DNA of 64,000 nucleotides, from the NCBI GenBank assembly GCA_024403455.1, contig JAKSRR010000007.1, positions 1 through 64,000 on the forward strand. Reading direction: 5' to 3'. A program made the translations under genes and the position numbers. Each line of letters opens with the position of its first letter. Position 1 is the stretch's first letter. This DNA comes from Lachnospiraceae bacterium (lineage in GTDB: Bacteria; Bacillota; Clostridia; Lachnospirales; Lachnospiraceae). Shown piece after piece: positions 9,496 through 43,141 of the stretch. Below the pieces are notes generated by a model. The model was given only the letters and a program-made list of their open reading frames with translations, did no database searches and had not been told where the DNA came from.

Positions 9496-11004
9496 ATGAA
9501 GAAGAAAAAAATCTTTGCTGGAATTGTTATCGTTGACTGCGTGCTTTTGATAGCTGTGGTTGTTCTATTGATACGGTTCGTGTCTATTAAAAAGAATAAT
9601 GCTGCGGCGAATGTGGGGACGGAATCTATCGCTGCCGAGAATGTGCCGGGAGAAAGCGTAGAAGTCACTTCTGCGGGAGACTCTGTGGTAGAAGAAGCGC
9701 AGCAGACTCCTTCCAGAGAAAAGACGGATAGTAAGCCTGTAGAGGAAGGCGTGCCCATAGAATTTACGAGTAGTACAGCGCAGTCAAGAGACGGAGACTG
9801 GCTCTTTGCGTGTGGTAATCAGATTGTTGATAGAGAGGGCAAACCAGTATGGCTGACGGGTGTGAACTGGTTCGGGTATAATACTGGAACGAATACTTTT
9901 GATGGCCTTTGGAACAGCGATTTAAATACGTCAGTGAAGGCTATTGCGGATCATGGGTTTAATATCGTACGAATCCCCATTTCTTCAGAATTGCTTTTGC
10001 AGTGGAAGAAGGGGGAGTATCCTTCTGCGAACTTTAATCAGGCTACGAATTCCTATCTGGTTGGGATGAATTCACTGGAGATATTTGATTACGTTTTAAG
10101 TCTTTTTGAGGAGAATGGAATCAAAGTGATTTTGGACGCACACTGTGCGAAAACAGATGCGTCTGGACATAATATAAATCTCTGGGTGAATGGTGATATT
10201 ACGGAAGAGAAGTATATCGAAGCCTGGGTATGGGCAGCAGAGCGCTACGCAAATAACGATACGATTGTTGCGTTTGATTTGGAAAATGAGCCTCATGGTA
10301 AACCTTTCGAACAGGAAAAGGCCATTTGGAATGGTTCTGCGTCTGATAATAACTGGCCCTATATAGCAACAAAAACGGCAGCTGCAATCTTTGCCGTGAA
10401 TCCCAATGTTCTAATCCTTGTAGAAGGAACGGAGATTTACCCTGTGGATATCGTTGCCAATGGGGATTATCATTCTACAGATGAGAAGGATTATTATTTT
10501 TCTTGGTGGGGTGGTAATTTAAGAGGTGTTAAAGATTATCCGGTTGACCTTGGAGAATTCAGCAATAAACTAGTTTATTCCCCTCATGATTATGGCCCGA
10601 CGGTGTTTGAACAGCCCTGGTTCCATAGTGGATATGATTATGATTCGTTGATGGAAGAGTGTTGGGAGGACAACTGGTTTTATATCTATGAGGAGGAGAT
10701 TGCGCCGCTTCTCATAGGAGAGTGGGGTGGATTTATGCGGGAGCCAAACCTTACATGGATGACCCATCTTAGGACACTCATTAAGAACTATCATCTGAAT
10801 TATACCTTCTGGTGCTTTAATGCGAATTCGGGAGATACCGGTGGTTTGGTATTGGATGATTTTACCACCTGGGATGAGGAAAAATATGCTTTTGTAAAAG
10901 AAGTACTTTGGCAACAGAATGGAAAATTCGTAGGCCTTGATCACGAGGTGCCCTTAGGCGTAAACGGAATCACATTATCGGATGCTTATGTAGAGAACTG
11001 GTAA
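9496..11004 (+). CDS. GH5 cellulase (endoglucanase), membrane-anchored
   Basis: A 502-residue enzyme with an N-terminal hydrophobic anchor (residues about 5-28), a Ser/Glu-rich linker to about residue 95, then a glycoside hydrolase family 5 barrel. Visible landmarks: WLTGVNWFGYNT, the acid/base in FDLENEP (Glu265) and the nucleophile in IGEWGG (Glu409). It should cleave internal beta-1,4-glucan bonds at the cell surface. It has no CBM of its own. The short gene just upstream supplies a CBM-like domain with the same kind of anchor, suggesting a two-protein cellulose-degrading pair. It ends five bases before ispH, so these genes are embedded in a housekeeping operon. Confidence 0.92.
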   Translation: MKKKKIFAGIVIVDCVLLIAVVVLLIRFVSIKKNNAAANVGTESIAAENVPGESVEVTSAGDSVVEEAQQTPSREKTDSKPVEEGVPIEFTSSTAQSRDGDWLFACGNQIVDREGKPVWLTGVNWFGYNTGTNTFDGLWNSDLNTSVKAIADHGFNIVRIPISSELLLQWKKGEYPSANFNQATNSYLVGMNSLEIFDYVLSLFEENGIKVILDAHCAKTDASGHNINLWVNGDITEEKYIEAWVWAAERYANNDTIVAFDLENEPHGKPFEQEKAIWNGSASDNNWPYIATKTAAAIFAVNPNVLILVEGTEIYPVDIVANGDYHSTDEKDYYFSWWGGNLRGVKDYPVDLGEFSNKLVYSPHDYGPTVFEQPWFHSGYDYDSLMEECWEDNWFYIYEEEIAPLLIGEWGGFMREPNLTWMTHLRTLIKNYHLNYTFWCFNANSGDTGGLVLDDFTTWDEEKYAFVKEVLWQQNGKFVGLDHEVPLGVNGITLSDAYVENW

Positions 11005-11009
11005 GAAAT

Positions 11010-11885
11010 ATGGCAGAGGTTATTTTAGCAAAGACGGCAGGCTTTTGTTTTGGAGTGAAGCGTGCTGTGGATGAAGTATACAAGGAAATAGAAAGCGGCA
11101 AGAAAATCTACACGTATGGCCCAATTATTCACAATGATGAGGTGGTGAAAGATTTAGAGGCGAAAGGTGTTACGACGATTCGTGATGATGCAATGCTTCA
11201 GAATCTTTCCGAAGAAGATGTGGTGATCATCCGATCTCATGGAATTACAAGAGAGACAATGACGACACTGGAGGCTACCGGAGCAACCCTGGTGGATATG
11301 ACCTGTCCCTTTGTGAAACGAATTCACAATCTGGTCTCCGAGCATAGGGATGACTATAATATCGTGATTGTTGGGGACCCCGTACACCCGGAGGTGGTAG
11401 CAATAAAAAGTTACGGTGATGCTACTACCAAAGTGATCTCCGATGCGGAGGCAGCAGTGTCCTATGTGCCGGAAAAAGAGGGGGGCGTGTTTATCGTTTC
11501 TCAAACCACATTTAATCTAAATAAATTTCGAGAAATTGTTGAAATTTTTGAAAAAAAAGGTTATTATAGTAACGTTGTGAATACTATCTGTGACGCAACC
11601 AGAAAGAGGCAGGAGGAAGCGAAAGCGGTTGCTTCTGGTGTCGATGTGATGGTTGTGATAGGTGATTTGAAGAGTTCCAACAGTCGTAAGCTTTACGAGA
11701 TTTGTAAAGAAGTATGTGCGCAAACCTACTTCGTTCAGACTCTAGAAGACTTCGAACGCAGTGGGGGGGATCTTCAACGTACTTCTTCGTGTATGCCAAG
11801 CATAACAGTAGGTATTACAGCGGGGGCTTCCACCCCGAATAATATTATAGAGGAGGTTCAAAAATATGTCCGAAATGACTTTTGA
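11010..11885 (+). CDS. ispH: 4-hydroxy-3-methylbut-2-enyl diphosphate reductase
   Basis: A 291-residue iron-sulfur enzyme that carries out the last step of the MEP pathway, giving IPP and DMAPP. The three cluster cysteines are seen in GFCFGVKRAV, DMTCPFVKR and NTICDATRKRQ. The HG motif, Glu-containing active site and the SQTTFN signature are also present. The length is typical of the stand-alone enzyme. In many Clostridia IspH is fused to the S1-domain protein. Here the two are separate frames overlapping by 20 bases, with the S1 ribosome site (AGGAGG, about 11850) inside ispH. Only five bases separate it from the cellulase stop codon. Confidence 0.96.
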   Translation: MAEVILAKTAGFCFGVKRAVDEVYKEIESGKKIYTYGPIIHNDEVVKDLEAKGVTTIRDDAMLQNLSEEDVVIIRSHGITRETMTTLEATGATLVDMTCPFVKRIHNLVSEHRDDYNIVIVGDPVHPEVVAIKSYGDATTKVISDAEAAVSYVPEKEGGVFIVSQTTFNLNKFREIVEIFEKKGYYSNVVNTICDATRKRQEEAKAVASGVDVMVVIGDLKSSNSRKLYEICKEVCAQTYFVQTLEDFERSGGDLQRTSSCMPSITVGITAGASTPNNIIEEVQKYVRNDF

Positions 11886-12951
11886 ACAAATGCTGGAAGA
11901 TTCTTTTAAAAACATTCATACAGGAGAAGTGCTCGATGGTACTGTTATCGCAGTTACAGCTGACGAAATTGCTGTAAGCATTGGATATAAGTCCGACGGT
12001 ATCGTTACCAAGCGTGAGTATAGCAATGATGCATCCATCGATTTAACCGCTGCTGTAAAGCCTGGTGATACTCTCACCGTTAAGGTTCTTAAGATGAATG
12101 ATGGTGATGGTCAGGTAGTGCTTTCTCACAAGAGAGTTATTGTTGAGAAGGTTAGCCAGGTTCTTGAAGATGCATTCAACAACCAGACTGTTCTTACTGC
12201 AACCGTAAGCGAAGTAGTTAAGGGTGGTATCAAGGTTATCGTTGATGAAGTTCCTGTATTCATTCCTGCATCCCTTGCAACCGATGGTTCTACTAAGGAA
12301 ATCGCTGGTATGGCAGGTACAGAGGTACAGTTCCTTCTTACCGAGTACAATCCTAAGAAGCGTCGTTACATTGGTGACTGCCGTAGCCTTCTTTCTGCAA
12401 AGCGTGCAGAGAAGCGTGCAGAAGTTCTTTCCACCATCAAGGAAGGCGATATCATTGATGGTACTGTAAAGAATGTTACCGCTTTTGGTGCTTTCGTAGA
12501 TATCGGAGGTATTGATGGTCTTCTTCACATCTCTGAGATGAGCTGGGGACGTATCGACAATCCTTCTTCTCTTTACAGAAAGGGAGATGCAGTTAAGGTA
12601 TTCGTTAAGGAAATCAAGGGCGAGAAGATTGCTCTTTCCGTTAAGTTTGATGACCGCAATCCTTGGGCTGATGCTGAGAGCAAGTATGCAGTAGGCAACA
12701 TCGTTAAGGGTCAGGTTGCTCGTATGACTGACTTTGGTGCATTCGTATCCTTAGAGGATGGTGTTGATGCACTCCTTCATGTATCTCAGATTTCTAAGGC
12801 ACACATCGAAAAGCCTGCAGATGTATTAAAGGTTGGCGATGAAGTAGAAGCTAGAATTATGGATGTTGATTTTGAAAACCACAAAATCAGCTTAAGCGTT
12901 CGTGATCTTCTTGCTGATGAAGAGCCTGCTGAGACCACTGAAGAAGCATAA
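11866..12951 (+). CDS. S1 RNA-binding domain protein (ribosomal protein S1 homologue)
   Basis: A 361-residue protein with four S1 (OB-fold) domains, at about residues 17-86, 103-168, 190-260 and 278-350. The third and fourth show the best consensus (VKNVTAFGAFVDIGGIDGLLH and ARMTDFGAFVSL...DALLHVSQIS), the second is divergent. S1 proteins bind mRNA and help initiate translation or protect RNA. Gram-positive versions with four domains are not always ribosomal. Codon use is strongly biased, as in highly expressed genes. The gene overlaps ispH by 20 bases and is closed by a strong terminator. Confidence 0.9.
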   Translation: MSEMTFEQMLEDSFKNIHTGEVLDGTVIAVTADEIAVSIGYKSDGIVTKREYSNDASIDLTAAVKPGDTLTVKVLKMNDGDGQVVLSHKRVIVEKVSQVLEDAFNNQTVLTATVSEVVKGGIKVIVDEVPVFIPASLATDGSTKEIAGMAGTEVQFLLTEYNPKKRRYIGDCRSLLSAKRAEKRAEVLSTIKEGDIIDGTVKNVTAFGAFVDIGGIDGLLHISEMSWGRIDNPSSLYRKGDAVKVFVKEIKGEKIALSVKFDDRNPWADAESKYAVGNIVKGQVARMTDFGAFVSLEDGVDALLHVSQISKAHIEKPADVLKVGDEVEARIMDVDFENHKISLSVRDLLADEEPAETTEEA

Positions 12952-36895: not shown

Positions 36896-37636
36896 ATGAA
36901 AATTTTATTGTTAAATGGTAGTCTTCGTGGAGAATGCAGTTCCTCTCTGAAGGTGGCAAATGCTTTTATCAAAGGAATTGTAGAAGAGACTGGTGCACAG
37001 GTTACCCAGGTGAATTTAAAGGAAAAGCGAATCGACCATTGCCATGGCTGTTTCGTGTGCTGGAAGACAACGCCAGGCACCTGCTGTATTCATGATGATA
37101 TGGATGAAATCCGTGATTTGGTTATGGAATCAGATATCATTATTGAAAGCTTTCCTTTATATTTTTTTGGATTACCCTCCAAAATGAAAGCGTTCATGGA
37201 TCGAATGATTTCCTATGTGCAGGAGTTTAGAGCCATGCCAGGAGATGAGGAAAATCACCGGTTCCTGCATAATATGCGTTATCCAGAATTACAAAAGAAA
37301 CATTTGGTGCTTGTTTCCACCTGTGGCTATGAGACTACGGATCAGTGCTATGATGCTGTGCAGAGAGAATATGACCTCATTTGTGGTGAAGGAAGATATA
37401 CGCTGATTACGGCTCCCCAGGGAGGAATGCTCTCGGAGGAAGGACTGAAGGCAAAGGTGGAACGGTATCTAACCAAATTCACTGAGGCAGGAAAGGTCTA
37501 TGGAAAGGAATTTAGACTTTCCAAAGAGATGGTAGAAGATTTGGCAGTGCCCATGTTAGGCCATAATACATTTGCTACGCTCATTAATAAAAATTGGGAC
37601 GAACCGGGTGTGGGGCCCTATGGTAAGCCTATCTAA
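36896..37636 (+). CDS. Flavodoxin-like NAD(P)H-dependent oxidoreductase
   Basis: 246 residues from the ATG at 36896, behind AAAGGA. An upstream TTG is less likely. The flavodoxin-like fold is seen in ILLLNGSLRGECSSSLKVA (FMN phosphate loop), a cysteine-rich motif CHGCFVCWKTTPGTCCIHDDM near residues 50-70, and the FPLYFFGLPSKMKAFMDRM segment. These match the iron-sulfur flavoprotein / NADPH-dependent FMN reductase family. The cysteine motif CxxCxxC with later Cys could be the compact cluster motif of iron-sulfur flavoproteins. The redox partner is unknown. It is transcribed divergently from the glucosidase. Confidence 0.82.
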   Translation: MKILLLNGSLRGECSSSLKVANAFIKGIVEETGAQVTQVNLKEKRIDHCHGCFVCWKTTPGTCCIHDDMDEIRDLVMESDIIIESFPLYFFGLPSKMKAFMDRMISYVQEFRAMPGDEENHRFLHNMRYPELQKKHLVLVSTCGYETTDQCYDAVQREYDLICGEGRYTLITAPQGGMLSEEGLKAKVERYLTKFTEAGKVYGKEFRLSKEMVEDLAVPMLGHNTFATLINKNWDEPGVGPYGKPI

Positions 37637-37715: not shown

Positions 37716-38396
37716 ATGAAGCAGAAGAAATCAGTAGGGGAACATATTAAAGCATTTTTTGCCAAGATAGCTTTTGGTATTGCCCATGGTGTATTAAGAA
37801 TCATTTATCCTGTAAAGGTGACCTGGGAAGATAAAGTGGATGCGAAGGCAACCTTAAAGAAGGGTTGCGTTGTTTTCTCGAATCATACGGGGCATACCGA
37901 TGGCCTATACATGGCAGAACTGTTAAGACACTACAAGGTATATACCTATGTTGCCAGAGAGTGGTATGACAAGAAAAACATCAACTGGTTGTTCCGAAAT
38001 CTTCGCTACATTCCTATTGACCGCAAGGAAATGGATACCAGCTGGCTTACCTTAGGAACCAAGAAATTACAGGAAGGTTTTCCTGTATACATGTTCCCGG
38101 AAGGAAAGACAAGCAAGGAAGAAATGAATGAGTTTAAACCTGGATTTTTAGTTCTTGCAAAGCAGGCGGCAGTCCCGGCACTCCCGATCTGTATTGATGG
38201 TCTATTTAAGCCTTTTCACAGGATTCATATCATTGTGGGAAAGACCATGGAGATGGATTTGAACGAAGAAGGCAGACCTAGCCAGGTGATGAAAAAGTAT
38301 GCTTGTGTGTGCAGGGATAAGGTGGCACTATTAAAGAATGTGTATGGCAGGGAAGCTGTAAAAGCAAGAAAAGCTGAGGAAAAAGCGGGAAAATAA
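37716..38396 (+). CDS. 1-acyl-glycerol-3-phosphate acyltransferase (PlsC-like)
   Basis: 226 residues. The HX4D catalytic motif is visible as NHTGHTDGLYMAELL and the acceptor motif as MFPEGKTSKEE, with PALPICIDGLF further on. PlsC proteins add an acyl chain to lysophosphatidic acid at the membrane, with acyl-ACP or acyl-CoA as donor. The N terminus has one weak hydrophobic segment. It lies directly upstream of the ACP and fused ketosynthase genes, though with its own start signals and a promoter between. A general phospholipid role is likely. A special acyl product from the neighbouring synthase is possible. Confidence 0.88.
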   Translation: MKQKKSVGEHIKAFFAKIAFGIAHGVLRIIYPVKVTWEDKVDAKATLKKGCVVFSNHTGHTDGLYMAELLRHYKVYTYVAREWYDKKNINWLFRNLRYIPIDRKEMDTSWLTLGTKKLQEGFPVYMFPEGKTSKEEMNEFKPGFLVLAKQAAVPALPICIDGLFKPFHRIHIIVGKTMEMDLNEEGRPSQVMKKYACVCRDKVALLKNVYGREAVKARKAEEKAGK

Positions 38397-38481
38397 GCAA
38401 TCTTGCCGAATGCTGCATGTAGTTTTAAAAACTACATATCATGGTATTTGTATTTAACACTATGCGAGAAGTGGTATTTTG

Positions 38482-38490
38482 TGTTATAAT
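38482..38490 (+). promoter_or_regulatory. Extended -10 promoter of the ACP gene
   Basis: TGTTATAAT, an extended -10 box, 62 bases before the ACP start. It has no clear -35. Confidence 0.5.
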
Positions 38491-38552
38491 GTTTCATAGT
38501 GTGAAGTCAGGCGTTACAAATGCCTATAATAAATATTTATGGAGGAAGTACC

Positions 38553-38801
38553 ATGAACGAAAAAGAACTTGAAATTGCAGAAAATATTAAAGGAATGCTT
38601 TCCAAGAATCTTCGTATTCCCGCAGAAGAGCTTGATTATGAAGTACCTTTATTTGGAGATGGAATCGGTCTTGATTCTGTAGACTCTCTTGAGATTATTT
38701 CTTGCATTGATGCATCTTACAATGTAGATATGACTGGTGTAGATAAGGAACACTTCTACAACATTACCAGCCTTACCAAGTATGTTGTAGCAAATATGTA
38801 A
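38553..38801 (+). CDS. Acyl carrier protein
   Basis: 82-residue acidic helical protein. The ATG at 38553 has GGAGGAAG upstream. The attachment site for 4'-phosphopantetheine is in IGLDSVDSLEI: the serine of Asp-Ser near residue 43, with Val and Asp after it, where the fatty-acid ACP consensus is Asp-Ser-Leu-Asp. The gene is a self-contained unit with its own promoter and terminator, followed by the fused ketosynthase and FabG genes. It is probably the carrier for that synthase and not the housekeeping AcpP, whose usual neighbours (plsX, fabD, rnc) are absent. Confidence 0.88.
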   Translation: MNEKELEIAENIKGMLSKNLRIPAEELDYEVPLFGDGIGLDSVDSLEIISCIDASYNVDMTGVDKEHFYNITSLTKYVVANM

Positions 38802-38821
38802 TTGCATAATAAAACAATTTA

Positions 38822-38857
38822 GGGATGAGGCGGACAGTCTCATCCTTTTTTATTTTT
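38822..38857 (+). terminator. Intrinsic terminator after ACP gene
   Basis: GGATGAG / CTCATCC stem with a nine-base loop, followed by a long T-rich run. Confidence 0.8.
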
Positions 38858-38893
38858 GATGGGTTTCATTTTAGATTTATCCCTTTGGATTGT

Positions 38894-38922
38894 TTGGAAA
38901 AAAGGGTGGGTTTTGGTATAAT
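38894..38922 (+). promoter_or_regulatory. Promoter of the fused ketosynthase gene
   Basis: TTGGAA (38894-38899), 17-base spacer, TATAAT (38917-38922) with an extended TG. It lies 58 bases before the ATG. Confidence 0.65.
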
Positions 38923-38980
38923 AAGTAGGAACTATGTGTCATTCTATTTGGCATAAATATACACAGAATGGGGATTATCA

Positions 38981-41377
38981 ATGAATAAGACAGTAAATAC
39001 CAGATGTGTTGTTACCGGTCTTGGCTTAATTAGTGCTATTGGTAACGATGTTAATGAATGCTGGGAGAACGCCCTGGCAGGAAAGAGTGGAATTAAGAAA
39101 GTTACTAGTGTAGATGATACAAACTGCTATGCAAATCTTGGAGCAGAAGTATCCTGTGACACTTTAGATGTAGATGATTTAAGTAAGGAAGTTGATCGTG
39201 TAAGTAAGCTCTGTTTAAAGGCTTCTAGAGAAGCTATGAAGGATGCTGCTTATGAAATCGCTGCAGACGAGGCCAGCCGCGTAGGTGTTATTATGGGTTC
39301 CTGCGTAGGTGGAGTGGTTTCCATTGAAAATTATGTAACAAAGGGTGGCAAGACAGAAGATATCAATCGTATGAGCATTTCTCAGATTGCTACGCATGTT
39401 GCCAATGCTGTTGGCGCAAAGGGTGTGATTACCAACGTAGGTAATGCTTGTGCAGCAGGTACGATTTCTATCGCATACGCTTGTGAACTGATTCGTGCAG
39501 GTGTAGCGGATGCCTTTATCGTTGGTGGTGCGGATGCATTTGCTTCTGTACCTTACTCTGGATTCTTAGCATTGCATGCCCTTTCTGAAAATCCTTGTTC
39601 TCCTTTTAACCATAGCAATGGTATCACTTTGGGAGAAGGCTCCGGTGCTCTTGTTGTGGAATCCTATGAGCATGCTATGAAGCGTGGCGCAAAGATTTAT
39701 TGTGATGTACTTTCTGCTGGTATCAGTTCGGATGCACATCATATTACCGCACCTCGTACGGATGGTGTGGGACAGATGTATGCGATTCGCACTGCAATTA
39801 AGAATTCTGGTATTACTCCTGCAGACATTGATTACATTAATGCGCATGGTACTGGTACGGGTAAGAATGACCAGGCAGAGTTCCTTTCATTACATACTAT
39901 CTTTGATGAAGAGACTGATAAACTTTCCGTATCTTCTACCAAAGCGATGGTAGGTCACTGCCTCGGTGCAGCAGGTGCCATTGAAGCAGTCTTTGCAGTG
40001 AAGGCACTTACAGAAAATAAGATTCCGCCTACGGTTGGCTATACAGAGGAAGATCTTGCAGCACTTCCTGAAAAGGCTGGTAAGATTGACTTTATGCCTA
40101 ATGAAATGAAGGAAAAAGAACTCAACTATGTAATGAGCAATTCCTTCGCATTTGGCGGTTCTAACGCCTCCATTATCTTCAGTAAGAAGCCTGGAGATGT
40201 AAAGGAAACGGAAACCGATGAGAAGATTTATGTTACTGGTATGGGTATTGTATCTCCTCTTGGAAATGGTGTTGCAAACTATATTGAAAAGGCAACTTCC
40301 GGTGCATCCATGGAGACCGCTTCCGGTATCGCAAATGTTGGAAAGGAAGACTACGATAAGTTTGACGTTAAGATGGCATTCTATCGTAAGCTTGATAAGT
40401 TTAGCTTAATGCAGGTAATCTCTGGCTTGGAGGCAATGCAGAGTGCTGGTATTGAAGTAACAGAAGACAATACCGAAAGTCTTGGTATGATTGTTGGTAC
40501 TGGTGATGGCCCGATTACCACGGTTTATGAATTCCAGGAAGCAATTAGTGCGCAGGGCAATGCAAATGGTTCTGCATTTAACTTCCCTAATACTGTATAT
40601 AACGCAGCTGGTGGATATTTATCCATTAAGAATGGTATGCGTGGTTACAATGTAACTGTTACTTCTGGAGCGCAGGCTGGTCTTTCTGCTGTATGCTATG
40701 CTTACAATGAACTGAAGCAGAACAGAGCAAGTGCAATGATGGCTTCTGGTACAGATGAGAACAGTGAAGTAATGACAAAGTTATACAATCAGCTTGGTCT
40801 TACTACAGATGCTAAGAAGAGCGCTTATGATGGTGGCAATGGATTTAACTTATCCGATGGATCAACCACGATTGTTCTTGAAAAAGAAAGCTATGCTAAG
40901 GAGCATGGTGCAAAGTTATATGCAGAAGTAGCTGGATATGGTATGGCGCATGCCAATATCGGTATTGGTGACCTTGCTGGTTCCGAGGAAGCTTTAGTAT
41001 CTGCAATGAATCAGGCACTAGAAGCAGCTGGTGTTAAGGCGAGCGACATCGATTGCGTATTTGGTTTTGCAAACGGTAATGCAATGGTAGATGATATGGA
41101 AAAGAAGGGGCTTGCAGCCCTCTTTGAAGATATGCCTGTGATTGAAGTAAAGGATATTGTTGGCGAAGCGAGAGCGGCAGCAGCAACCCTTTCTGCCGGA
41201 CATGCAGCCCTTACTCTTGCAGGTGAACTTGGAACAAGCCAGAAGGGCTATGTATTTAAGAATGATGCTACCATCGAGAAGGCAACGATTAATACAGAGA
41301 ATTTCAAGAATGTGCTTGCTATTGCCTATGCACAGGGTGGTACTTATAGTGCCGTTGTATTAAAGAAAGCAGAATAA
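38981..41377 (+). CDS. Fused ketosynthase / chain-length-factor-like protein
   Basis: 798 residues made of two FabF-like thiolase-fold domains. Domain 1 (residues about 7-402) has the full catalytic set: Cys157 in GNACAAGT, His289 in INAHGTGT, Lys321 and His326 in KAMVGHCLGA. Domain 2 (about 415-798) keeps the fold but has lost it: the nucleophile region reads TSGAQAGLS (Ala564/Gln565), the first histidine site reads GFANGN, and the second VGEARA. Lysine in KDIVGE remains. Loss of Cys with Gln in this loop is the hallmark of chain-length factors (KSbeta) of type II polyketide and aryl polyene synthases. Such partners are normally separate proteins, here they are fused. It stands between an ACP and a FabG ketoreductase. 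Product unknown. Confidence 0.85.
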   Translation: MNKTVNTRCVVTGLGLISAIGNDVNECWENALAGKSGIKKVTSVDDTNCYANLGAEVSCDTLDVDDLSKEVDRVSKLCLKASREAMKDAAYEIAADEASRVGVIMGSCVGGVVSIENYVTKGGKTEDINRMSISQIATHVANAVGAKGVITNVGNACAAGTISIAYACELIRAGVADAFIVGGADAFASVPYSGFLALHALSENPCSPFNHSNGITLGEGSGALVVESYEHAMKRGAKIYCDVLSAGISSDAHHITAPRTDGVGQMYAIRTAIKNSGITPADIDYINAHGTGTGKNDQAEFLSLHTIFDEETDKLSVSSTKAMVGHCLGAAGAIEAVFAVKALTENKIPPTVGYTEEDLAALPEKAGKIDFMPNEMKEKELNYVMSNSFAFGGSNASIIFSKKPGDVKETETDEKIYVTGMGIVSPLGNGVANYIEKATSGASMETASGIANVGKEDYDKFDVKMAFYRKLDKFSLMQVISGLEAMQSAGIEVTEDNTESLGMIVGTGDGPITTVYEFQEAISAQGNANGSAFNFPNTVYNAAGGYLSIKNGMRGYNVTVTSGAQAGLSAVCYAYNELKQNRASAMMASGTDENSEVMTKLYNQLGLTTDAKKSAYDGGNGFNLSDGSTTIVLEKESYAKEHGAKLYAEVAGYGMAHANIGIGDLAGSEEALVSAMNQALEAAGVKASDIDCVFGFANGNAMVDDMEKKGLAALFEDMPVIEVKDIVGEARAAAATLSAGHAALTLAGELGTSQKGYVFKNDATIEKATINTENFKNVLAIAYAQGGTYSAVVLKKAE

Positions 41378-41394
41378 TTAAGAATTGGTTCAGC

Positions 41395-41421
41395 CCCCAG
41401 TGGTTCACTGGGGACTTTTTA
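41395..41421 (+). terminator. Hairpin terminator between ketosynthase and FabG
   Basis: CCCCAGTG / CACTGGGG stem, three-base loop, then a short T-run. Only 25 bases precede the FabG start, so read-through may matter. Confidence 0.65.
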
Positions 41422-41445
41422 TCAGAAAGGAAAAGGGAAAGAAAC

Positions 41446-42186
41446 ATGAGTGAAGCAAAAGTTGCATTGGTTACTGGCGCCAGCAGAGGCATTGGAAAGG
41501 CTTGTGCCTTAAAACTTGGAGAAGCAGGTTATAAGGTAGCTGTGAACTATAATTCTAATGAAGCTGCAGCTATGGAAGTTGTTGATGCAATCAAAGCCAT
41601 GGGAAGTGATGCCATTGCAGTAAAGGCTAACGTGTCTGACCAGAAGGAAGTAAAGGGCATGATGCGTGAAGTTGTAAATGCATTTGGACAGATTGATGTT
41701 CTTGTGAATAATGCAGGTATTGTAAAAGATGAGTATGTGCTGATGATGAAATCAGAGACCATCGACCAGTGCCTAGATCTTAATATTAAGGGATATATGT
41801 ATTGTGCGCAGGCAGCAGCCCTTAAGTTTTTCTCTAAGAAGAACGGATGCATTATCAATGTTTCCTCTGTTTCTTCCGTGCTTGCTGTTGCTGGACAGAC
41901 AGTATATTCTGCAACCAAGGGTGCAGTAAACTCTATGACAGCGACCATGGCTAAGGAATTGGCGCCTTATGGTATCCGTGTGAATGCAGTTGCTCCTGGT
42001 TTCATTGCTACCGATATGGTTGATCAGCTTCCGGAGGATAAGAAGGAAGAATACTTAAAGGAGATTCCTCTGCAGCGTTTTGGTAAGCCTGAGGAGATTG
42101 GTAGTGTGGTATGTATGTTGGCATCGGATGCATGCTCCTATATGACTGGCCAGGTAATTGTATTAGATGGTGGTCTGTCTCTGTAA
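41446..42186 (+). CDS. 3-oxoacyl-ACP reductase (FabG-type SDR)
   Basis: 246-residue short-chain dehydrogenase. Seen: the NADPH loop VTGASRGIGKACA, NNAG at residues 87-90, catalytic Ser in INVSSVSS and the YSATK motif with Tyr and Lys, then PGFIATDM. It reduces 3-oxoacyl-ACP to 3-hydroxyacyl-ACP. AAAGGAAAAGG precedes the ATG. It directly follows the fused ketosynthase gene, so it probably serves as the ketoreductase of this set rather than of the main fatty acid operon. Confidence 0.9.
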   Translation: MSEAKVALVTGASRGIGKACALKLGEAGYKVAVNYNSNEAAAMEVVDAIKAMGSDAIAVKANVSDQKEVKGMMREVVNAFGQIDVLVNNAGIVKDEYVLMMKSETIDQCLDLNIKGYMYCAQAAALKFFSKKNGCIINVSSVSSVLAVAGQTVYSATKGAVNSMTATMAKELAPYGIRVNAVAPGFIATDMVDQLPEDKKEEYLKEIPLQRFGKPEEIGSVVCMLASDACSYMTGQVIVLDGGLSL

Positions 42187-42198
42187 TTAAGAATCATT

Positions 42199-42231
42199 GG
42201 CGTTTTCCTAGGGTGGAAAGCGCCTTTTTTG
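42199..42231 (+). terminator. Intrinsic terminator after FabG gene
   Basis: GGCGTTTTCC / GGAAAGCGCC stem with a six-base loop followed by six T. Confidence 0.85.
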
Positions 42232-42289
42232 TTGGAAAATGTTTTGAATAATTATGGCGTGCGAAGGAACAGAACGTGGGGGAAATATA

Positions 42290-43141
42290 ATGGCAAAGAC
42301 AGGACTGATACTGGAAGGAGGAGCCATTCGCGGAATATATTCCGCAGGGGTTCTGGATTATCTTCTGGAAGTTGATCAGAGATTTGATTATGTCATTGGC
42401 GTGTCGGCCGGATGTGGAAATGCTGCGAACTTTGTATCTAGACAGATAGGAAGATCTAAAAAGGTCATTACCCATGAAGGATTGGAGTCCTTTTGGGGTG
42501 CCCGCAGTTTTAAAAACAGCAGAAAATTCATGAATTTAGATATTCTGGTAGATCAGTATGCGTTAGAGGATGCGCGTTTTGATTTTGATACTTTTTATCA
42601 GTCGGAGACGGACTTAGAGTGTATTGCGATTGACTGTGAAACAGGAAAAGCTAGATACTTTGAAAAACCATACGAAGATGATCAGAGACTGCTTCTTGTT
42701 AGTAAAGCCAGCTGTTCTGTACCCTATGCATGTAAGCCTGTGGAAATCGACGGACATTTTTATTTAGATGGTTCTTTGGCAGATTCGATTCCTGTGGAAC
42801 GGGCGATGCATAAGGGATGTGAAAAGATGTTGGTGGTAATGACCAGACCGGAAAGTAAAGGGGCAACCAATTATGCAAAGGTAAAAAGAATCACGCGTAA
42901 GTTCTATGGAAAGAAGTATCCGAAACTATGCGAAACCATGGAGCATAGAGGCGTTGCCTATAAGAGACAGTTGCGACTTCTTCATAAGCTAGAGGCGGAG
43001 GGCAAGGTATTTATCATGTGTCCGGAAAAGACCATTGGGCATTTTGAGAAGAATAAGGAAAAAGTGGAAGCCTTTTACCGGTATGGATATCTTTCTATGA
43101 AGAATAGATACGAAGAGTTTAAAGCTTTTCTGGAAAAATAA
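42290..43141 (+). CDS. Patatin-like phospholipase
   Basis: 283 residues from the ATG at 42290, which has GGGGGAA upstream. An earlier in-frame ATG at 42254 lacks a site. Seen: the oxyanion loop LEGGAIRGIYSAGVLDYLL, the nucleophile serine in GVSAG (GxSxG) near residue 41, and the aspartate of the dyad in DGSLADSIPV. Relatives (RssA/YlbK group) hydrolyse acyl ester bonds of lipids. There is no signal peptide, so it acts in the cytoplasm. It is separated from FabG by a terminator, but its closeness to PlsC, ACP and ketosynthase genes keeps a lipid-remodelling role in view. Confidence 0.88.
   Translation: MAKTGLILEGGAIRGIYSAGVLDYLLEVDQRFDYVIGVSAGCGNAANFVSRQIGRSKKVITHEGLESFWGARSFKNSRKFMNLDILVDQYALEDARFDFDTFYQSETDLECIAIDCETGKARYFEKPYEDDQRLLLVSKASCSVPYACKPVEIDGHFYLDGSLADSIPVERAMHKGCEKMLVVMTRPESKGATNYAKVKRITRKFYGKKYPKLCETMEHRGVAYKRQLRLLHKLEAEGKVFIMCPEKTIGHFEKNKEKVEAFYRYGYLSMKNRYEEFKAFLEK

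What the first reader, a model, noticed from the sequence alone, without database searches (positions are those of the whole stretch)
37716..43141. Compact ACP / fused ketosynthase-CLF / ketoreductase set, a possible type II polyketide or unusual fatty-acid pathway
An ACP, a 798-residue protein with two ketosynthase domains and a FabG lie in a row, with a PlsC acyltransferase before and a patatin phospholipase after. Domain 1 has Cys157, His289, Lys321 and His326. Domain 2 has lost the Cys and both histidines and reads GAQAG at the nucleophile loop, close to the Gln-containing loop of chain-length factors. KSalpha and KSbeta are normally separate proteins, so the fusion is unusual. The usual fatty-acid operon genes (fabD, fabK, fabZ, acc) are absent, so a special acyl chain, perhaps put into lipids by PlsC, is possible.
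Basis: partly seen in the sequence, partly recalled or inferred. Interest (0 to 1): 0.82.

Follow-up and report, generated by a model that had tools for sequence, protein, structure and literature searches.

The report
Gut-bacterial fused ketosynthase lipid pathway
Gut and rumen bacteria of several phyla, among them the commensal Lachnospira eligens, carry a little-known gene set around one fused double ketosynthase that probably builds an unusual, unsaturated fatty chain for their membrane lipids.

Summary
The 798-residue protein is an active-type ketosynthase (Cys157/His289/Lys321/His326 kept in 79 of 79 distinct full-length proteins, window included) fused to a chain-length-factor-like half (never Cys; His326 position Glu in 77 of 79). 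Correction: the window's Cys position is Ala; the Gln sits one residue later. The second half groups with partner/CLF proteins, not FabF, and the host has a separate FASII operon. The neighbourhood is conserved: of 53 well-flanked loci, ACP is in 53, KR 52, FabZ 51, a flavoprotein 47, PlsC or PlsX (never both) 42, FabD 32; none has a FabK homologue. Hosts include Lachnospiraceae, other Clostridia, Treponema, Fibrobacter and Acholeplasmatales; L. eligens carries it on its 627-kb plasmid. The flavoprotein's nearest solved relative is an ene-reductase (short match). The window copy is atypical: no FabZ, FabD or ACC beside it, no FabZ in the 82%-complete assembly. Best reading: a KS-CLF synthase without classical enoyl reductase makes a polyunsaturated acyl chain that PlsC puts into glycerolipid. 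The product is inferred, not shown. The fusion is not unique: distant fused relatives sit in cyl-like and Streptomyces clusters.

The parts
36896..37636 (+). Flavodoxin-fold FMN protein with CX2CX2CX7C motif; candidate ene-reductase or electron donor of the pathway
   Evidence: PF03358/PF02525; four Cys in 66 of 66 aligned proteins with letters there (67 aligned); present in 64 of 82 loci; best PDB hit FLR flavone reductase 7d38, E 1.4e-7, N-terminal 103 residues only
37716..38396 (+). PlsC-type acyltransferase (NHx4D and PEG motifs)
   Evidence: PF01553; present in 57 of 82 loci; His57 in 58 of 58 with letters, Asp62 in 52 of 59 (Glu in 7), Glu129 in 59 of 59
38553..38801 (+). Dedicated acyl carrier protein, GLDSVDS phosphopantetheine site
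   Evidence: PF00550, NF006617 below its cut-off; attachment Ser in 70 of 70; an ACP in 53 of 53 well-flanked loci
38821..38847 (+). Terminator-like hairpin after ACP (11 pairs)
   Evidence: 10 of 75 loci have one in this gap
38894..38922 (+). Promoter-like site before the fused gene (10 of 12 matches, TG before the second hexamer); weak evidence
   Evidence: 10 promoter-like sites in the region against 15.3 in shuffles
38981..40189 (+). Ketosynthase half of the fused protein (Cys157, His289, Lys321, His326)
40205..41377 (+). Chain-length-factor-like half of the fused protein (Ala564 at the Cys position, Glu729 at the His326 position)
41395..41413 (+). Terminator-like hairpin after the fused gene (8 pairs)
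   Evidence: 3 of 77 loci have one in this gap
41446..42186 (+). FabG-type ketoreductase
   Evidence: cluster KRs are split from FASII FabG and other KRs in a 16-protein tree, support 100
42199..42224 (+). Terminator-like hairpin after the ketoreductase (10 pairs, T6 tail), where FabZ lies in relatives
42290..43141 (+). Patatin-like lipase (GVSAG, DG dyad) with DUF6363
   Evidence: Ser51 and Asp172 in 23 of 23; present in 21 of 82 loci

Best explanation
The locus is one copy of a patchily spread, cross-phylum gut-bacterial pathway for a special acyl chain. In the typical cluster ACC makes malonyl-CoA and FabD loads it on a dedicated ACP. The fused KS-CLF primes itself by malonyl decarboxylation (inferred; no FabH gene lies in the loci) and extends the chain iteratively, with chain length set at the KS/CLF interface. 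KR and FabZ reduce and dehydrate after each step, and no FabK-type enoyl reductase is present, so the acyl-ACP is polyunsaturated, probably a conjugated polyene as in highly reducing type II PKS. The FLR-like flavoprotein may reduce some double bonds. PlsC (PlsX in a few relatives) puts the chain into glycerolipid, and the patatin removes or remodels it. Shown here: gene content, catalytic and inactivated residues, phylogeny, conserved neighbourhood. Inferred: priming, product, lipid destination, role of flavoprotein and patatin. The window copy must borrow MAT and ACC from FASII, and its dehydratase has not been found.
For: KS residues in 79 of 79, CLF half without Cys in 79 of 79 distinct proteins. 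All second halves and partner proteins form one clade apart from KSs, support 99; the second halves of this family, the cyl-like and the Streptomyces fusions group together (99). In 53 loci with at least 4 kb on both sides: ACP 53, KR 52, DH 51, flavoprotein 47, PlsC 37 or PlsX 5 with no overlap, MAT 32, AccDA 20, AccD 12. No FabK homologue and no FabH gene among the 5,021 frames (60 aa or more) of the 84 loci, with positive controls found. Seven of 38 host genomes examined have neither a standalone KS nor a FabK above 100 bits. HR type II PKS consists of KS-CLF, KR and DH and makes polyenes (PMC10698177, passages). Own FASII is separate.
Against: No product is known. The KS half scores better against FabF structures (4ls5, E 2.6e-92) than against the KS 6kxd (2.3e-54); the CLF half's best PDB hits are also FabFs. 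The KR and FabZ are of FabG/FabZ type as in FASII. FabI- or FabV-type enoyl reductases were not searched for. The window copy has no FabZ, FabD or ACC nearby, and its assembly (82% complete) has no FabZ or MaoC hit. In 11 of 38 genomes the fused protein is the only KS, four of them with a FabK elsewhere, so an ordinary saturated product is possible there. The flavoprotein could be the enoyl reductase. L133 lacks KR and DH.
Confidence: 0.5

Rival explanations
1. An autonomous alternative fatty acid synthase: the FLR-like flavoprotein (or a host FabK) is the enoyl reductase and the product is an ordinary or slightly altered saturated acyl chain, made without FabH and sent into lipids by PlsC/PlsX.
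For: Flavoprotein in 47 of 53 well-flanked loci; its nearest solved relative is FLR, an ene-reductase. Fused protein is the only KS in 11 of 38 genomes, all 11 with the flavoprotein; four of them have a FabK elsewhere. The loci L130 and L142 (Acholeplasmatales) and L148 (titled Bacillales) carry AccB, AccC, AccD, AccA, FabD and a second ACP (Pfam check on L130).
Against: The flavoprotein is absent in five of the 38 examined loci (L122, L128, L133, L137, L149). The FLR match covers only 103 residues at 34 bits. 27 of 38 hosts have a standalone KS, 18 of them a FabK too, and the window's host has both.
Confidence: 0.27
2. An anaerobic unsaturated-fatty-acid branch (FabN/FabO-like, recalled): FabZ isomerises a double bond and the fused KS elongates the cis intermediate, feeding FASII.
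For: FabZ in the cluster in 51 of 53 well-flanked loci.
Against: Dedicated ACP, FabD, ACC and acyltransferase argue for a separate line; a CLF half is not needed for a FabO role (inference); not tested directly.
Confidence: 0.1
3. In the window organism the copy is decaying: FabZ, FabD and ACC lost, terminator-like hairpins between genes, so it makes little or only a one-round hydroxyacyl product.
For: No FabZ beside it or in the assembly; three terminator-like hairpins between its genes; 0 of 34 same-genus genomes carry it.
Against: All remaining reading frames are intact with catalytic residues; GC equals that of the flanks; the assembly is 82% complete and the FASII FabZ is missing too, so the dehydratase may lie in unassembled DNA.
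Confidence: 0.12

Closest known systems
CylI / cyl (granadaene) operon of Gram-positive bacteria and its relatives
   Same: Fused KS-CLF of about 800 aa with ACP, KR, DH and malonyltransferase in the Priestia pBM500 cluster; the halves are phylogenetic neighbours. That pBM500, G043 and G132 are cyl-like is my reading of gene content; that CylI is a fusion is recalled
   Different: 30-37% identity; no GcvT-barrel protein or exporter as recurrent neighbour; instead PlsC/PlsX, flavoprotein, patatin
Highly reducing type II PKS (KS-CLF + KR + DH; ishigamide-type, name recalled)
   Same: Same core set: ACP, KS, CLF, KR, DH, no FabK-type enoyl reductase
   Different: KS and CLF fused; KS half closer to FabF than to 6kxd; lipid acyltransferase in the cluster; gut and rumen hosts
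PUFA synthase KS-CLF didomain (Pfa)
   Same: KS and CLF in one polypeptide making unsaturated acyl chains (papers seen in the listing only)
   Different: Here a free-standing two-domain protein with discrete ACP, KR, DH
Housekeeping FASII FabF
   Same: The whole fused protein (both stretches summed) passes TIGR03150, 503 bits against a cut-off of 494
   Different: Second, inactivated half; separate FabF (598 bits) in the same genome
FLR flavone reductase of Flavonifractor plautii (7d38)
   Same: Nearest solved relative of the flavoprotein; shared flavodoxin-like N-terminus and Cys motif
   Different: 34 bits over 103 residues; FLR chain is 310 aa; substrate presumably different

Membership tests
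Highly reducing type II PKS | Active KS plus inactivated CLF partner | tested here: met
   Residues in 79 of 79; tree
Highly reducing type II PKS | Cognate ACP and KR in the cluster | tested here: met
   53 and 52 of 53 well-flanked loci, window included
Highly reducing type II PKS | Dehydratase in the cluster | tested here: not met
   Window copy lacks it; 51 of 53 well-flanked loci have it, so the family meets it and this copy does not
Highly reducing type II PKS | KS falls in the HR type II PKS clade | tested here: inconclusive
   FabF structures score higher than 6kxd; the tree had no characterised HR reference
Highly reducing type II PKS | Polyene product | not testable with these tools
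   needs chemistry
cyl / granadaene operon | Fused KS-CLF homologue | tested here: met
   30-37% identity to cyl-like fusions; the streptococcal protein itself was not compared
cyl / granadaene operon | CylF-type GcvT-barrel protein beside the KS-CLF | tested here: not met
   GcvT-type neighbour in L066 (annotated), L071 and L072, not in L065, L069, L070; none among the window's neighbours
Housekeeping FabF | Single active KS domain, sole elongating KS of FASII | tested here: not met
   two domains, and a separate FabF in the FASII operon
FLR-class ene-reductase (flavoprotein) | Full-length homology to FLR including its C-terminal part | tested here: not met
   only residues 1-103 align

The most novel reading that the evidence does not exclude
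A horizontally spread lipid pathway of gut and rumen anaerobes, shared by Firmicutes, spirochaetes, Fibrobacter and wall-less bacteria, in which a single fused KS-CLF with KR and FabZ builds polyunsaturated or polyene acyl chains, an FLR-class flavoprotein tunes their saturation as a new kind of enoyl reductase, and a dedicated PlsC or PlsX puts them into membrane phospholipid: an oxygen-free route to polyunsaturated membrane lipids.
Probability: 0.33. Interest if true: 0.84.

Novelty: new variant of a known kind. Interest (0 to 1): 0.68.

Why it matters
If right, cultured gut bacteria (Lachnospira eligens ATCC 27750 carries the cluster on its 627-kb plasmid) and rumen fibre degraders make a membrane lipid for which I found no report, by a KS-CLF route known so far from polyene pigments and antibiotics. 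It would be testable at once in cultured strains, would link type II polyketide chemistry to phospholipid assembly, and might reveal a new enoyl-reductase family.

Tried and rejected
Rejected: domain 2 as an active FabF; the fused protein as the host's only KS; a chance neighbourhood; a mis-binned contig, since the neighbouring ClpB is 76-79% identical to the 18 full-length same-genus copies (of 21 same-genus genomes searched; the other three hold fragments, 64-80%) against 62-64% for its best matches outside the genus; foreign base composition (GC 41.9% against 41.4% for flanks). A direct FabZ search in the own genome had no positive control of its own, but the profile PF07977 finds FabZ in 25 of 35 same-genus genomes (own one included, as a miss). 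MaoC-type dehydratase: none in the own genome. Led nowhere: structure prediction (switched off), so no model, tunnel length or fold search; the identity of 9s5h, a two-chain KS entry that is the best PDB hit of the seven-protein profile, was not resolved. The flavoprotein-versus-only-KS association (11 of 11 against 22 of 27 genomes) is too weak to count.

Literature, listings only unless said: 0 papers; 20 of 28 listed (17), 20 of 229 (18), 20 of 262 (27), 14 of 14 (39), 10 of 10 (49), 4 of 4, on PUFA synthases and Pfa producers (57), 2 of 2 (58), 2 of 2 (82). None listed was on this cluster as far as title and start of abstract show. One search listed 5 of 4,469 and is no test. The library holds open PMC papers only. 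Passages read: PMC10698177, PMC10132072 (the words Lachnospir, eligens and fused do not occur), PMC6985545, PMC7862272.

Rows dropped: L094 and L131 are the same records as L069 and L070, so 84 loci became 82 and 81 proteins became 79; three loci whose fused protein is under 700 aa in the held stretch (L102, L141, L146) were left out of the residue counts; 53 of 82 loci had 4 kb on both sides. Of 269 relatives found only the best 80 were kept and read. Searches examined 38 of the 80 host genomes. Gene families were named from annotated or Pfam-checked members; their counts undercount FabZ because overlapping frames masked it, and one search corrects this with profiles.
Full report
Observation. 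The 798-residue protein has two ketoacyl-synthase halves; the whole protein, both stretches summed, passes the FabF model TIGR03150 (503 bits, cut-off 494). Cys157, His289, Lys321 and His326 are invariant in all 79 distinct full-length proteins aligned, window included. In the second half the Cys position is never Cys; in the window it is Ala564, with Gln at the next position, so the likeness to the Gln of actinorhodin-type CLFs (recalled) is shifted by one residue. His326's counterpart is Glu in 77 of 79 and Arg731 is invariant. The Lys...Glu pair is also seen in three of five separate partner proteins in the tree set, a fourth has Arg...Glu; one of the five (L074b) still has a Cys.

Phylogeny. 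In a maximum-likelihood tree of 18 fused proteins cut into halves plus 20 single KSs or partners, all second halves and partner proteins form a clade with support 99, though the order inside it is partly poorly supported (35, 38) and one member has a very long branch; the FabFs, the host's own included, form a separate clade (77). The second halves of the window family, the cyl-like fusions and the Streptomyces fusion group together (99); the first halves are neighbours too, with 65 for the Streptomyces one. This fits one old fusion (inference). Against a simple filing: by sequence both halves still score highest against FabF structures.

Not the housekeeping enzyme. The own genome (2.23 Mb, 82% complete) has a FASII operon on contig C19. 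FabF, FabH, FabK, ACP and the two halves of AccDA pass curated models; for the FabT-like regulator the FabT model is the best match but under its cut-off; FabD passes PF00698 and FabG is named by similarity. The fused gene was found in 0 of 34 same-genus genomes, while the ClpB two genes downstream of the patatin is 76-79% identical to full-length same-genus copies and base composition does not differ: patchy inheritance in a genuine contig.

Conserved neighbourhood. A scan of the genome collection (84,980 species by its description) with the second half gave 269 relatives; the best 80 were read. By record title these include 36 Lachnospiraceae, 3 Butyrivibrio, 10 Treponema plus one Spirochaetia, 7 Fibrobacter and four Acholeplasmatales, Anaeroplasma or Mollicutes records; L079 bears the title Bacteroides but is almost identical to two Clostridium records. 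The seven Fibrobacter records form one clade; seven of ten Treponema records form another, two lie next to Fibrobacter and one (L126) elsewhere, so contamination of single bins is an unlikely cause. In the 53 with at least 4 kb on each side: ACP 53, KR 52, DH 51, flavoprotein 47, PlsC 37, MAT 32, PlsX 5. PlsC and PlsX never occur together; 11 of the 53 have neither. L133 lacks KR and DH; the window lacks DH. No frame of the 84 loci resembles FabK at E 1e-3; the only FabH hit is a 91-residue stretch of one fused KS. The gene order varies (patatin and PlsC before or after the core), which argues for functional linkage rather than mere shared descent (inference). In L. eligens the set is TetR, alpha/beta hydrolase, ACP, KS-CLF, FabG, FabZ, FabD, AccD, AccA, flavoprotein, PlsX on a 626,744-bp plasmid (AccA from the frame at L065:20376-21284, PF03255).

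The flavoprotein. Its four Cys (CX2CX2CX7C) are present in 66 of 66 sequences with letters there, the pattern of iron-sulfur flavoproteins (recalled). Its best solved match is 7d38, E 1.4e-7, residues 1-103. That entry is FLR of Flavonifractor plautii, which the authors call a new class of ene-reductases and which does not use NAD(P)H directly (PMC7862272, passages). This makes an ene-reductase role possible, not shown.

How it most likely works. KS-CLF, KR and DH are the make-up of highly reducing type II PKS, which make polyenes (PMC10698177, passages); granadaene synthesis is described with the same steps by CylI, CylG and CylZ (PMC6985545, passages). The lack of FabH fits priming by decarboxylation in the CLF (recalled for actinorhodin-type CLFs). 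The PlsC or PlsX indicates a glycerolipid destination. Seven of 38 host genomes examined have no standalone KS and no FabK above 100 bits, four more have a FabK but no standalone KS; these are draft genomes whose completeness was not told, so absence is soft. They leave open the rival that the cluster is a full alternative fatty acid synthase.

The window copy. It reads flavoprotein, PlsC, ACP, KS-CLF, KR, patatin, with gaps of 79, 156, 179, 68 and 103 bases. Terminator-like hairpins follow ACP, KS-CLF and KR (11 such sites on both strands of the region against 4.8, sd 2.0, in shuffles), so it may not be one transcript; such hairpins are rare in relatives (10 of 75 and 3 of 77 gaps, window included). 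KR is up to 82.5%, flavoprotein 73%, KS-CLF 72% and PlsC 68% identical to its nearest relatives, but the patatin only 45%, so the patatin may have another history. FabZ is missing beside KR; no FabZ or MaoC family hit exists in the assembly, and the FASII operon runs FabF, then AccDA after a short gap, where three same-genus genomes (G003, G034, G009) have FabZ. Either the dehydratase lies in unassembled DNA or it has been lost.

Novelty. The searches listed under Tried and rejected (open PMC papers, mostly listings) gave no paper on this cluster. The parts are known kinds; the combination (free-standing fused KS-CLF, PlsC or PlsX, FLR-like flavoprotein, patatin) and its spread over gut phyla were not described in anything I saw.

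Noticed in passing
G000 contig C19 (L073:11319-11344): FabZ is absent from the host's FASII operon exactly where same-genus genomes G003, G034 and G009 have it; FabF is followed by AccDA after a short gap.
   Followed up: partly
L074 (G043 contig C60, 1-20000): A cluster with three KS/partner pairs next to two 2-hydroxyglutaryl-CoA dehydratase D-type proteins and a BadF-type ATPase; unexplained combination.
   Followed up: partly
L072 (G043 contig C66) and L071 (G132 contig C40): Cyl-like clusters with fused KS-CLF and GcvT-barrel protein, next to frames that look by eye like ABC transporters, in two genomes of the same order.
   Followed up: partly
L068:8840-14301: Streptomyces plasmid cluster with a fused KS-CLF beside two single KS-type genes, one of which (10614-11900) has Ala at the Cys position but keeps both His.
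   Followed up: no
L070 (3538-8323): This Butyrivibrio-type locus adds two PlsC-family proteins, a second ACP and an AMP-binding ligase, as if a second acyl line fed the same lipid.
   Followed up: partly
L070:13328-14869: The carboxyltransferase here is a full-length PF01039 type (605 bits), unlike the AccD+ACCA fusion of L087; it was counted in the same AccDA family.
   Followed up: no
L078:4743-6071: A second ACP followed by a 351-aa protein without any Pfam match recurs upstream; each family is in five loci.
   Followed up: partly
L079: Record titled Bacteroides sp., but its fused protein is almost identical to those of two Clostridium sp. records (L077, L078); label or bin is doubtful.
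   Followed up: no
Same-genus genomes G016, G008, G018, G015 against G003, G009, G034: The genus holds two FASII operon types (FabF about 50% or about 70% identical to the host's), and several well-covered members (for example G007, G019, G028) gave neither a FabF-type match nor FabZ.
   Followed up: partly
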